Made by a program: the position numbers and the translations under genes. Source: Ridgeia piscesae (taxonomy: Eukaryota > Annelida > Polychaeta > Sabellida > Siboglinidae). Taken from it: DNA of 64,000 nucleotides. Position 1 is the stretch's first letter; every line of letters begins with the position of its first letter. The notes beneath the pieces are model-generated. The model made no database searches. It saw only the letters and a list, made by a program, of their open reading frames with translations, and had not been told where the DNA came from. Of this stretch, positions 17,201-26,200 are shown one piece after another. The stretch lies in contig JAODUO010000048.1 in assembly GCA_025642075.2 (NCBI GenBank), forward strand, positions 89,501-153,500, in the 5' to 3' direction.

Positions 17201-20200
17201 CAGCGGTTTTAAGCACGGCCAAAACTGCCACGTGATGAGTAAAAGAAGAGATGATGAGGAAGTCAAGGAAACGCCAGCGTCTATGGAGACAGACAGGTGT
17301 TGTGATGCGGAGGCTGGGGACAAGGAGAGGTCGCACGAGGAGGTGGAGCAGAGTGATGGGTCGGGCCAGAAGAGGAGACGGAAACAGAAATCTCGGAGCA
17401 GTGACGGCAGTGGTAGGTTTATGTGTTATCCGTGCACAGACTTCTGTTACACACAGTTCTAAATAGCTGATATCATCCTAAGCTGTCAAAAAATATAAAT
17501 ATGGATTTTTAGTTTTTTTTTAATATCAGAAATAAGTTTACATTTAGTCTGTTTTCAGTTTCTATGAGAGCTTGTCTGTGTGACTTTAGGGACAAAAGAT
17601 CACTCAAGGCAGACAGAGTCGACCTATACCTGCAAGAATGGACCCACCCAGTCAGGGGGTACAGCTGGGAACCCAGGGGATGACGACGACCCCCCTGAGG
17701 AGAGACCTGTCAAATTGAAGAAGACGTACGTTTGTTATTTCTGTTATTTCTGCCATAACAACAGCTGTTGAATAACTAATACTTGCTAAACATTTTGATG
17801 CATAGTATAGACTGAACACTTAATATTCCATGTGATGACAGGTGCAAAGAAATATATTATAAGCTTCGATTTTTACAAGAGACTTTAATTGGGTACTCCT
17901 TGTTTTATCACCCCCTTGTTCCAGACATGAGCAGGTAAACGAGGACACAGACACCGATACAGACACAGATGACGATGAGTCAATAACAGCCCAGCAGAGG
18001 GAGCCACTGGAGCAGCTGCACGGGGCATTAGACCTGATGGGCTTCTCCACGAGCAAAGGTTGTGGGGAGAGGTGAGATAAGCTGTAATCTGTCAGAGAAC
18101 ATTTAAACAAATACAAACTTGCAGTGGCAATGATCTTTGTAATGTAAAGTCTGTCCAGTCTGCGTTTGTCCTGCACAGATGTGTAATCATTAACATTAAT
18201 ACAGTGGTAGCATCCATTTGAAACATGAACCTTACGAATTAATTTTTGAACTATATTATAGATAATGTAGACAGAAAATGTTGAGATAATTTTAGAATTG
18301 CTACATACATTCTTCTTGCCAGTAAAATAAACTTTTTCATAAAAATTTTCATTACAAGAACATACTGTTATAATATCCAGTAAATTTCATTGTGATGAAG
18401 CCAAAACTTTGCCACATCCAATACATCACTGTTGAACATATTTATTTATTAACGTCTCTTAGCGTAAACTTGATAATAATAAGTATCAGCAAAATACACC
18501 GTTGCCCTTGGACATTGAATTTTGCAATGTCAGCGGTTAGGTTCATTGACTGTATTAACATAAAATAAGGGGACATTTTGTATGGAAGTATTTACTTGAC
18601 AGATACCAAAATGTTTACTCGGTCAGTTAAGCCCCAATTAAATTACTACTTTAATCTGATTTAATGTAATTATGGTACACAAATAATGTTTGGAAATCAC
18701 AAGAGCAAACCCGCCAATGGCTGGACTTTTTTGATGGTATCAATTAATAGGATCTTTGCTTTGTTATTAGTACAACTTGTAAAATTCATTTCTTTATAAG
18801 TGATGTGAATCTTAATATTAGTTAAAATGAATGTGGTGAAGCAGCCAACTTTGAAATGTGTTTTCTCAAAACTGAATTTCGCTTGCCTTTTTCCTGCTTG
18901 GCACCTCAATTGTATTTTTATATCTACATATCAACAGCATGTCATATATCAAGTATCAGTTTATAAAAGGAAATTTTGCTGGTGTTTTATTATATAAAAC
19001 TTATATAACATATTCTCCCACAAACATTTGAAGCTACTGGTGTATTTCTTCCAGATACAAGAAGCAGCCAGCACTGAGAGCAGGCCACGTGACGTACAGA
19101 GAAAAGAAACTTCGCCAGCGATCAAAGCAGCTGAACATGGGCAAGAAGCCAGTTACACTGGACGAATACAAGCGAGGCGACTCAGCCGTGTTACACAAGG
19201 CCAGATCCTTTCTGAAGAAATTGGAGGAGGGGGACGCTGACAGTTTTACAAATGTGAGGACAAAGGGTGAAAGATTTGAGTCTGATGGCGAACGGGATGA
19301 TCCGTTGACACCTAGTGACGATGATGGAACGGCCGAGGGACCAGCTTCGGATGTAAATGGCACAGTGGGGTTGCCAGGCTGTGTTCCCCAGCAGATAGTT
19401 GACCTCCCAAGTGGAGAACATACAGTCGAGCAGTCCACAGCTGACACACAACTTGAGATAGATCACTACAGTAATGATGGTGTAACGCCTTGCTCTGAGA
19501 TTCGGTCAAGTGAAGCAATCAACGCGGACAAGATGGTAAAGCAGAAACGCAGACGAAGGAAAAGGAGGAAATGTTTGCCGATGCCACCAGATGTCGCTAG
19601 TGATGACGAACTGCGCAAGTACTGGGCCCAGCGCTACAGGTTGTTTTCGCGTTTTGACGAGGGTATCAGGATGGACAGAGGTTAGTCGGATAACGTACAT
19701 AAGTAGGCGAACTCTACTACCAGTTTTAGGCACATTCACATGTATGTGGGTTGGCAAGATGTTTCCAAATTTCATAAAATGGCTGCACATCAAGCCTGTG
19801 GTTGTAATTCGGTCATCGTCGCAAGCCAGGGGTCATTGCTCTATGCTATATACCCCTGGCCGATCATCTCTGTAAAGTTGGGGAGTGTGCAGAGTCACAC
19901 CATACAATTATAGCAATTGACTTCATCAGTTGCCACTGTACTAACCAAACCATGGGAACGTCCCAATTTGAAGACAGATACATGAATGATGGGAATCCCA
20001 ATATAATGACCCATTCATATCCTAAACATTACATGTAACATGACCAGCCTGGTGGTTCTCTGTTGTAGAAGGATGGTTCTCTGTTGTAGAAGGATGGTTC
20101 TCTGTTGTAGAAGGATGGTTCTCTGTTGTAGAAGGCTGGTTCTCCATTGCAGAAGGATGCTTCTCTGTTGTAGAAGGATGGTTCTCTGTTGTAGAAGGCT

Positions 20201-23200: not shown

Positions 23201-26200
23201 AGGCTGGTTCTCTGTTGTAGAAGGCTGGTTCTCTGTTGTAGAAGGATGGTTATCTGTTGTAGAAGGCTGGTTCTCTGTTGTAGAAGGCTGGTTCTCTGTT
23301 GTAGAAGGCTGGTTCTCTGTTGTAGAAGGCTGGTTCTCTGTTGTAGAAGGCTGGTTCTCTGTTGTAGAAGGCTGGTTTTCAGTGACGCCAGAGAAGATCG
23401 CGGAACACGTCGCGGAGCGATGTCGCTGTGACACGATCATTGATGCATTCTGTGGCGTAGGCGGCAACACAATACAGTTTGCATTCACATGTGAGAGAGG
23501 TAGGAACTAGTGTTGCACTGAGTGTGTCATAGTCATTCCTTCACTCTGCTTGTTAACGTTTCTTTGACTCTTGTCAGACATTCACTGTCCCCACTGTCTG
23601 ATGTATGTTAGTGTGACATACATGTACAGAATATTTCCATGTGCCCATATGCATTTTGAAATATTTGGAATGTAGCACGTTTTCAAGTGATTGGAACAAG
23701 TTCACATGTTGTATTCTCTTTCGTGAATCGTTTCCTGAAGTCTTCCTGTTTACAGTGTAGAAAACACGGAACACTTAATATTCATGGATGAATATATTAT
23801 CCAAAAGGACTTTGAATAGTGGAATCTCACTTTTTAAACCAATCTCGCAACTTGACAAAAGTGACCCAAATGCAGAAGCAATTGTATCAGTGGGACTACT
23901 TTCTATATCCTGTTAGAAAAAAATCTGACCAAGAGCAACCTTAATTGTGAGCCGTGTTTGTGACCATAAAGCAGGATTTAACTCTGTGCAGATAACTATA
24001 GCTAACTAACTAACATCCGTGAATCTGAAAGGCAAGTTGTCTGTTCCACCATCAAATATCTGCAGTGGTGATATATTAAAAGTGGGAATATTGCGAGTTA
24101 ATTGATCATCGGTGGGCCTTGTAGTTAATTCAGCAAACACACCGCAGTATTTCAGCAGAGGAAAGTTTTAATACTCAAGTTGTGTCAGATCTTTCTGGTA
24201 GGTAAATGCAATTTTGTGGGGGGCATACATCTTGCACATATTTTGTTCTAGTATTAAAACAAAAAACATTTTAAAATAAGGTACAGACTGCCTATGTTTA
24301 TTGGTTCTAAAAAATGTGTAGTCGTCTGGTATTTTTCAGTGATTGCCATTGACCTTGACCCAGAGAAAATAGAATGTGCACGGCATAATGCAGCAATCTA
24401 CAACGTGGCCGACCGAATAGAATTCATTGTCGGTGATTACATGCAGCTTGCCCCATCACTGTGTGCAGATGTTGTATTCCTGAGCCCACCATGGGGAGGA
24501 CCGAACTACTTGCAGGCCGAAGTGTTTGATCTGAAGACAATGATTCTGTTGGACGGGTGAGAGGGTCGGGTCGGGTCGGGGGAAAGACACCCTGACACTC
24601 AGTTTATAGAACACCGTTTTGAATCATTTTACTGCCATTTCAAAACTGTCCGAATGAGGATATGTATGAATGAATTGTATACATGCTTTAATTGTATTAT
24701 GTCCAGATGCATCCCCAGAACAGAAGTTGAGAACTTGAGATGTTATTCAAGTGGACAGGTTTGCCAGATGATTAATTGAAAGCTCTCAGCAATCCTAATC
24801 ATTTGACCACTATCACTATGAATACGTATCTCTTTCATACTAAGGTTTTACTACCAAAAGTAATTTTCTTTCAATAAAAATTCTGTAGCAATTTCGGGTT
24901 TGCTTGATTATACAATCACAGTTGCCTGCAGATACACAAAAAGGTTGGTCTGACATTTAACAAGTTTTTAACATAATCAAGAACATTTTCAGAACTTGGC
25001 ACAGTGGCAGAAATATGTGAATGTTTTGGAACTTTTCAAAATGGTTGCAGCAATGTGTTATGTGATCAGTTGTTCAAATTTTGTCGGCCATTTGTGAACG
25101 TAAATGTACTACAGTAGGTAGTCTGAATGAGGGAACAGTGTGGTACACAGTGATCAGAACTTGTCTTGCATTATTTTCTAAGACTTGCATGTGTATCAAG
25201 AAGATCACATCAGCATTCATCAGCTGTCGGATATACACTTGCTTGGAATATGTGTAACATTACTAAACATTTTTTGTAAAGAAACTAACTTTGTTGAGAA
25301 CAGGACATTATAAAATGCATGACACTTTCTACAGTACCAGTAGATTGTGTTAAATTGTGCAATATTGATATACATTGATAAGGGTAAACCACAAAGATAA
25401 ATATATATATATAAATATATCTTAGTCAGTACAAAGCAACTGCTCATTGGCTGACTGTAACATTTGGCACACACATTATTAGATATTGATATATTTATAC
25501 AACTTATTTCCATTTATAACTTCACCAGACAGTAAGACGGGATCATCTGAGATAAAGAATGCTGATAGAATCTTATCACATCCATATCTGGAGTTAAGCT
25601 TAACTAGCATTCTTTAATCTTATCACAGTAGGTAAACAACATAATCTGTCAAACTGATTTCCGGTCAGCAGTTTGGTATAGGTAATTTAACTTGCTGAGG
25701 TCATTCTAATATAGACTACCCCCTCGTAAGCAAGAAATATGTCTAGGTAATAGGTTAAGTTGGCAATGGGATACATAATAATGGCAAATATTTAAAGTTA
25801 AAATAACATCTTTTTGCTTTAGTATATGTAATATGTTGCAAACTCCTTCAAATAAGTGGCACTTTTGGCATATACTGCTGCCAGTTGTACACAAGATAAT
25901 GCAATTTATTTTAATTAAATGAAAATTTGATTAGCAAGTCATCTATATTTAGTGTTGTGTTCTATATCGGAGCTAGCAAATCGTGTTTGATAATAGACCT
26001 GGCATCTTGCCAGCGGTAGATAACCTATATTGATACAGATTTTGGTGGAATGTTCTAATTAGAAATGTTTACTTGTACGTCCATGGGTCAGTTGCTATTG
26101 GTTTTCTTTATTTTATTGATAATTTATAACATTAGATTAACTTTTTTCACAACTGATATTGCACAATTGTGCTGCTGTCAGAAATGTCAATTCTACCAGC

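What the first reader, a model, noticed from the sequence alone, without database searches (positions are those of the whole stretch)
20055..23377. TGS1: a 3.3-kb minisatellite made of about 158 copies of the exon 7 splice acceptor
Each 21-bp unit contains the intron end CTGTTGTAG and the first bases of exon 7 (AAGGCTGGTT). The last unit is the working junction at 23367/23368. The exon part encodes EGWFSV, which is conserved in human TGS1, so the array must have grown out of an ancestral exon-intron junction. The result is a field of well over 100 potential 3' splice sites directly before the SAM-binding exon.
Basis: partly seen in the sequence, partly recalled or inferred. Interest (0 to 1): 0.92.

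Follow-up and report, generated by a model that had tools for sequence, protein, structure and literature searches.

The report
Splice junction repeated 156 times
In what is likely a deep-sea tubeworm, the end of one intron and the first bases of the next exon of the cap-methylating gene TGS1 stand 156 times in a row, and splicing is predicted to work only because the last 11 copies keep the protein's reading frame.

Summary
At 20053-23377 there are 156 tandem copies of the TGS1 intron 6/exon 7 boundary (155 complete units: 144 of 21 bp, 11 of 25 bp). Of 156 junctions, 152 keep the AG, and the last (23367|23368) starts exon 7. This is a "mirage": a minisatellite spanning an exon-intron boundary, a kind described in amphioxus genes.
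(2) The commonest unit is seven codons, EGWFSVV, in the frame of exon 7 (EGWFSVT), including the serine that contacts the m7G cap. Only the last 11 of 152 AG acceptors give full-length TGS1; the other 141 lead to a stop. (3) The 25-bp variant both shifts the frame and carries the array's only consensus branch point, CTGAC; the last lies 30 nt before acceptor 23178. (4) A second mirage (22 junctions, 30 bp) sits at an ornithine decarboxylase acceptor 10 kb away. There an intronless coding sequence, identical to my exon model over 457 of 457 residues, uses the last unit.
Likely a tolerated slippage product, not a device. No TGS1 transcript was found and no relative's intron could be examined, so acceptor use is untested.

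The parts
20053..23377 (+). Minisatellite with 156 junctions; consensus TGGTTCTCTGTTGTAG|AAGGC
19055..19680 (+). TGS1 exon 6 (ends ...ATGGACAGAG|GTTAGT)
19681..23367 (+). TGS1 intron 6, 3687 bp, of which 3315 bp are array
23368..23499 (+). TGS1 exon 7, starts in phase 1, EGWFSVT...; its first 10 bases, AAGGCTGGTT, are exact in 77 of 155 array units
23157..23367 (+). In-frame zone: 11 AG acceptors (23157, 23178, ... 23346, 23367), the only ones of 152 that give full-length TGS1
23133..23157 (+). Last of the eleven 25-bp variant units; its four extra bases shift the frame; holds CTGAC (branch A at 23148, 30 nt before acceptor 23178)
23242..23262 (+). Variant unit with T-T-A (A at 23252, 31 nt before acceptor 23283)
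   Evidence: distance by hand
21056..21714 (+). Block of 31 units, repeated at 21916-22595 with one extra unit: a segmental duplication inside the array
20053..20068 (+). First copy, TGGTTCTCTGTTGTAG, with unique intron directly upstream: likely the ancestral intron end
33585..34246 (+). Second junction-spanning array, 30-bp unit, 22 junctions, 14 with AG, at the acceptor of ornithine decarboxylase coding exon 5
34238..34375 (+). Ornithine decarboxylase coding exon 5; its acceptor (last array unit) is the one used in protein P0121

Best explanation
The 156 copies of the TGS1 intron 6/exon 7 boundary likely grew from one 3' splice site by replication slippage and unequal exchange, and are predicted to be tolerated because splicing would use one of the last 11 acceptors, the only ones that keep the TGS1 frame. 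Shown: the copies, their AGs, the frame outcome of every AG, the block duplication inside the array, and the shared 8-mer at both ends of the unit. Inferred: slippage started between TGGTTCTC in the intron and TGGTTTTC in the exon, 21 bp apart. Inferred: because 21 bp is seven codons, choosing any acceptor from the last frame-shifting unit onwards costs only whole heptads, while choices further upstream meet a stop and would be removed as nonsense RNA. Inferred: pairing across the exon with the donor at 23500, plus the lack of consensus branch points in the ordinary units, steers the spliceosome to this 3' zone; 23367 (no insert) is my first choice, with 23178 (nine extra heptads) and 23283 (four) as minor products. 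I find no sign that the array is a selected device.
For: Unit = intron end + exon start, last unit = exon 7 start. TGS1 match across the junction. 11 of 152 AGs give full length and 141 give a stop, 140 of these stops being TGA inside a 25-bp unit. Shared TGGTTYTC at the two edges of the unit, unique sequence outside. Recurring runs of 17 and 15 units against at most 8 in 500 shuffles. A second array of the same build at the ornithine decarboxylase acceptor, where the coding sequence P0121 (457 of 457 residues equal to my exon chain; contig 1979 nt) skips 21 upstream junctions, 13 of them with AG, and uses the last. Array edges at splice sites: 2 seen, 0.21 expected, P about 0.02 in 20,000 random placements. 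0 of the 240 hits listed has a second GWFS. Amphioxus mirages are reported to splice normally (passages of PMC3087553; PMC3902484).
Against: No TGS1 transcript of this species was seen in the lists. 23367 is the only one of 18 TGS1 and ornithine decarboxylase acceptors with no T-N-A in the -50 to -15 stretch; the last consensus CTGAC points to 23178 instead. The unique intron flank, with its possible branch points, sits next to the FIRST copy, so a strict first-AG rule (recalled) would choose 20068, which gives no TGS1. No relative was compared, so slippage from one junction is inferred. The P of 0.02 rests on two arrays and was computed after seeing them; plain overlap of arrays with splice sites is not unusual (2 seen, 1.63 expected). 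In the ornithine decarboxylase array every other AG breaks the frame, so its coding sequence cannot show whether other acceptors are used too. The assembly's copy number was not checked with reads.
Confidence: 0.76

Rival explanations
1. Leaky ladder: the last 11 acceptors are used together, so TGS1 exists as a family of proteins with 0 to 10 extra heptads (EGWFSVV, one of them EGWLSVV) in front of the cap-binding serine.
For: All 11 give full length; nine of the last ten units are identical; consensus branch point 30 nt before 23178, T-T-A 31 nt before 23283, none before 23367.
Against: In the sister array the coding sequence shows the last unit only, though there any other AG breaks the frame. 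0 of 240 listed hits carries a second GWFS. The insert would sit directly before a residue of the cap pocket (legend in PMC3278928).
Confidence: 0.22
2. The unit arose inside the coding exon (EGWFSV codons) and the acceptor came later, rather than from an intron-exon boundary.
For: All seven codons of the commonest unit resemble the exon: EGWFSVV against EGWFSVT, with F, S and V differing only at third positions.
Against: The left end of the array is TGGTTCTCTGTTGTAG directly after unique intron, so the first copy looks like an ordinary intron end. A pyrimidine-rich tract read in this frame gives F, S and V often (reasoning, not computed). Listed homologues have the peptide once.
Confidence: 0.1
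3. Selected device: the acceptor array tunes TGS1 level, for example by sensing snRNP supply, because TGS1 caps the snRNAs that must choose the acceptor.
For: 141 of 152 choices are non-productive; TGS1 makes the trimethyl caps found on U1, U2, U4 and U5 (passage of PMC3278928).
Against: An unrelated gene next door has the same kind of array; no unusual RNA structure, z from -0.65 to 2.0 in six windows; mirages of amphioxus show length instability.
Confidence: 0.04
4. Assembly artefact in copy number.
For: Period-21 arrays are hard to assemble; no reads were available.
Against: 15 unit types in a non-random order with a block duplication are not what a simple collapse or stutter gives (reasoning).
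Confidence: 0.05

Closest known systems
Amphioxus 'mirages' (Adh3, globins BflGb6 and BflGb9; splice-site repeats in troponin C and, imperfect, in PGBD5)
   Same: Tandem minisatellite-like copies of an intron-exon boundary; the genuine boundary stays in the gene beside the copies; many copies keep splice signals; normal splicing reported (passages seen).
   Different: Likely an annelid, not a lancelet; 156 junctions against 6 and 3 units in the two BflGb6 haplotypes; unit is a whole number of codons and open in the exon frame; 25-bp variant with a branch-point consensus. The unit length of 21 bp lies in the 10-72 bp range quoted for Adh3.
Intron gain by tandem genomic duplication (AG/GT proto-splice sites)
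   Same: Tandem duplication places extra splice sites in a gene.
   Different: Here no new intron is seen; the copies lengthen an existing intron. Seen as listings and as mentioned in PMC3087553.
NAGNAG tandem acceptors
   Same: Neighbouring acceptors in frame; every AG here is itself TAGAAG or CAGAAG (152 of 152).
   Different: Spacing of 21 nt and 11 usable sites instead of 3 nt and two (NAGNAG recalled).
Intron minisatellites of earthworm metallothionein genes
   Same: Annelid gene with intronic tandem repeats; extra copies of exon 4 not seen in transcripts (passages).
   Different: Mean monomers of 178 and 181 bp inside intron 1; no junction-spanning unit described in the passages I saw.

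Membership tests
Mirage (junction-spanning minisatellite) | Tandem units span an exon-intron boundary | tested here: met
Mirage (junction-spanning minisatellite) | The genuine splice junction works beside the copies | tested here: inconclusive
   Frame and homology fit 23367; no TGS1 transcript seen. Met in the sister array of ornithine decarboxylase.
Mirage (junction-spanning minisatellite) | Many copies keep the splice dinucleotide | tested here: met
   152 of 156 AG; 14 of 22 in the second array
Mirage (junction-spanning minisatellite) | Length instability between alleles or cells | not testable with these tools
   One sequence only; the genome search did not complete. The block duplication inside the array is an indirect sign.
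Mirage (junction-spanning minisatellite) | Occurs in cephalochordates (a feature of the described cases rather than of the build) | tested here: not met
   Best named hit of the ornithine decarboxylase is Lamellibrachia satsuma, 86% identity; Branchiostoma belcheri 59%.
TGS1 | Match to trimethylguanosine synthase across the junction | tested here: met
   3gdh E 8e-32; EGWFSVTP-type motif in 234 of the 240 listed hits, plain EGWFSVTP in 153

The most novel reading that the evidence does not exclude
The worm makes TGS1 with a variable number, 0 to 10, of extra EGWFSVV heptads, each repeating the peptide that carries the cap-stacking serine. The 25-bp unit at 23133-23157 acts as the gate: it supplies the branch point and, by its four extra bases, separates usable from unusable acceptors. 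An enzyme that caps spliceosomal snRNAs would then be length-tuned by how those same snRNPs read a minisatellite.
Probability: 0.12. Interest if true: 0.82.

Novelty: new member of a known kind. Interest (0 to 1): 0.52.

Why it matters
It likely takes junction-spanning minisatellites out of the lancelets into annelids, with two unrelated genes hit within about 14 kb, which suggests a general process in animals with many minisatellites. The 152 closely similar acceptors in one intron form a natural experiment on how the spliceosome chooses among nearly equal 3' splice sites, with an in-frame zone in which leaky choice would show as a 21-nt ladder.

Tried and rejected
RNA structure: six 350-nt windows of the array are not more stable than dinucleotide shuffles (z from -0.65 to 2.0, 30 shuffles each); a structure that hides AGs was dropped. 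Amphioxus as source: rejected. Own TGS1 transcript: not among the hits listed (the first 120 of 2671 and of 918; one search scored only the 7989 candidates sharing most words). The nearest, P0281, is 97% identical over 27% of the query; its longest contig is 589,885 bases and it reads on from the large exon into the intron, so it is genomic and says nothing on the junction. Is every array in the window a junction array? No: of the 13 arrays I tested (period 10 or more, overlapping rows merged by hand; microsatellites left out) 2 overlap one of 35 splice sites; the 43-bp array at 37444-38508 follows the ornithine decarboxylase stop codon. Overlap alone is not unusual (1.63 expected); only the match of array edge to splice site is. 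In one search two TGS1 donors were entered 6 and 2 bases off; one search repeats the edge test with corrected sites (0.21 expected, P 0.019). Papers: all ten searches used; I saw passages of five papers (PMC3087553, PMC3902484, PMC9921365, PMC12783039, PMC3278928) and read none whole. In the listings I saw no junction-spanning minisatellite outside amphioxus, but most subscription papers are not held. The original Adh3 paper was not read, only what two later papers say of it. PMC9921365 (Ridgeia genome, passages) uses Tandem Repeats Finder; the word minisatellite does not occur in its main text.
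Full report
What is there. Tandem Repeats Finder finds one array at 20053-23377, period 21, 156.2 copies. Cutting at each G|AAGG gives 156 junctions (20068 to 23367) and 155 complete units, 144 of 21 bp and 11 of 25 bp, in 15 sequence types. The commonest is AAGGCTGGTTCTCTGTTGTAG (38 of 155). The exon start AAGGCTGGTT is exact in 77 of 155 units, the intron end CTGTTGTAG in 110, both in 49. AG stands before the exon-like bases at 152 of 156 junctions; the four others have CG. The last junction opens exon 7 of TGS1 (23368-23499). Joined to the end of exon 6 it matches the solved TGS1 3gdh with E 8e-32, and DREGWFSVTPEKIAEH across the junction is identical. 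A chain of nine TGS1 exons with eight GT-AG introns is open to its stop, and a likely first exon ends near 14230. Intron 6 is 3687 bp, of which 3315 bp are array.

Which organism. The window's ornithine decarboxylase, 10 coding exons, equals protein P0121 at 457 of 457 residues. P0121 has no name; its source is given as 'lgn' and its longest contig is 1979 nt, so it is a sequence without introns: the genomic coding span is 5.2 kb (31957-37125). The best named hit is Lamellibrachia satsuma (86% identity over 89% of the query); Branchiostoma belcheri has 59%. The window is therefore likely a siboglinid annelid, a vestimentiferan tubeworm, of a species that I cannot name.

The reading frame. The commonest unit is seven codons, GAA GGC TGG TTC TCT GTT GTA, EGWFSVV; exon 7 begins GAA GGC TGG TTT TCA GTG ACG, EGWFSVT. 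From 23133 the frame of exon 7 is open upstream through the array. I spliced exon 6 in a script to each of the 152 AGs: 11 (23157 to 23367, every 21 bases) give full-length TGS1 and 141 end in a premature stop. Of these 141 stops 140 are a TGA in a 25-bp unit and one is in exon 7. The 25-bp units carry four extra bases; no AG upstream of the last one gives a full-length frame. In two mammalian TGS1 hits of 853 residues the serine of EGWFSVT is residue 671 and the SPPW tryptophan is 766. A figure legend in PMC3278928 says that m7G is stacked between Trp766 and Ser671 (passage). Each in-frame unit would thus encode a copy of a cap-contacting peptide; of the ten units between 23158 and 23367 nine read EGWFSVV and one EGWLSVV (sequences). 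Of the 240 hits listed have EGWFSVTP, 234 have a motif of this form, 6 do not, and none has a second GWFS.

Branch points. The consensus YTNAY and the rule that the first AG after the branch point is used are recalled. Within the array only the 11 units of 25 bp contain YTNAY, always CTGAC; the last branch A is at 23148, 9 nt from its own AG and 30 nt from 23178. 141 of 155 units have not even a T-N-A. Junction 23367 is the only one of 18 TGS1 and ornithine decarboxylase acceptors with no T-N-A in the stretch -50 to -15. This speaks against my first choice of 23367 and for some use of 23178 (nine extra heptads) or, after a T-T-A at 23252, of 23283 (four). From 19950 to the array the unique intron offers TTCAT at 20017 as the only full consensus. 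The old branch region therefore probably stayed at the left edge, more than 3 kb from the working junction.

The sister array. 10 kb downstream a 30-bp unit is repeated at 33585-34246, at the acceptor of ornithine decarboxylase coding exon 5. Of 22 junctions 14 keep AG, and only the last gives the full frame. P0121 uses that last one. Here 14 of 22 units, the last among them, have a T-G-A 22 nt before the splice position, which the ordinary TGS1 units lack. So in a mirage with 13 upstream AGs the right mRNA was made with the last unit. In this gene any other AG of the array would have broken the frame, so the coding sequence cannot show whether other acceptors are also used.

How it grew. The array starts at TGGTTCTC, straight after unique intron (CATGACCAGCCTGG), and ends in the exon at TGGTTTTC. 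Joining the flanks gives ...CCTGGTGGTTCTCTGTTGTAG|AAGGCTGGTTTTCAGTGACG, an ordinary junction with a short direct repeat 21 bp apart, the usual seed of slippage. The unit order has runs of 17 and 15 units that recur 41 and 40 units later; the longest run in 500 shuffles was 8. The two runs adjoin, so 21056-21714 recurs at 21916-22595 with one extra unit. Of the ten units nearest the exon nine are identical. All this fits slippage followed by unequal exchange; it is inferred, since no relative could be read.

Chance. Thirteen arrays of period 10 or more placed at random have an edge within 15 bases of one of 35 TGS1 or ornithine decarboxylase splice sites 0.21 times on average; two were seen, P about 0.02. 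Mere overlap is not unusual (2 seen, 1.63 expected). The test was made after the two cases were known.

What is known. [quoted passage not shown] A passage of PMC3902484 adds troponin C and imperfect repeats in PGBD5. The TGS1 array has the same build and is filed there, with two differences: the taxon, and a unit that is open in the exon frame. That 21 and 30 are both multiples of three is suggestive, but two cases prove nothing, and in the second array a stop makes the frame useless.

What it does. Most likely nothing. It is a tolerated by-product of slippage at a splice site, kept harmless by a usable zone at its 3' end. The testable alternative is a ladder of TGS1 isoforms 7 residues apart. 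RNA structure was not unusual. The limits are plain: no TGS1 transcript seen, no relative's intron, no reads, and the genome search did not complete.

Noticed in passing
33585-34246: Second junction-spanning array (30 bp, 22 junctions) at the ornithine decarboxylase coding exon 5 acceptor; 8 of 22 junctions, all in its 5' half, have lost the AG.
   Followed up: yes
37444-38508: 43-bp minisatellite of 25 copies shortly after the ornithine decarboxylase stop codon (37125), probably in the 3' untranslated region.
   Followed up: no
41714-42134 and 51842-52238: Two separate arrays, 10 kb apart, with the same 12-bp consensus GACGCAGAAGAG.
   Followed up: no
54755-55131: Perfect (AGTCC) array, 75.4 copies at 100% matches: looks very young.
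   Followed up: no
7164-8945, minus strand: Open frame of 594 aa with a CABIT domain (Pfam PF12736, E 3.7e-26).
   Followed up: partly
45462-45782: Array of the 7-bp unit TGCGGGC, 45.7 copies, strikingly G+C rich in a 41% G+C window.
   Followed up: no
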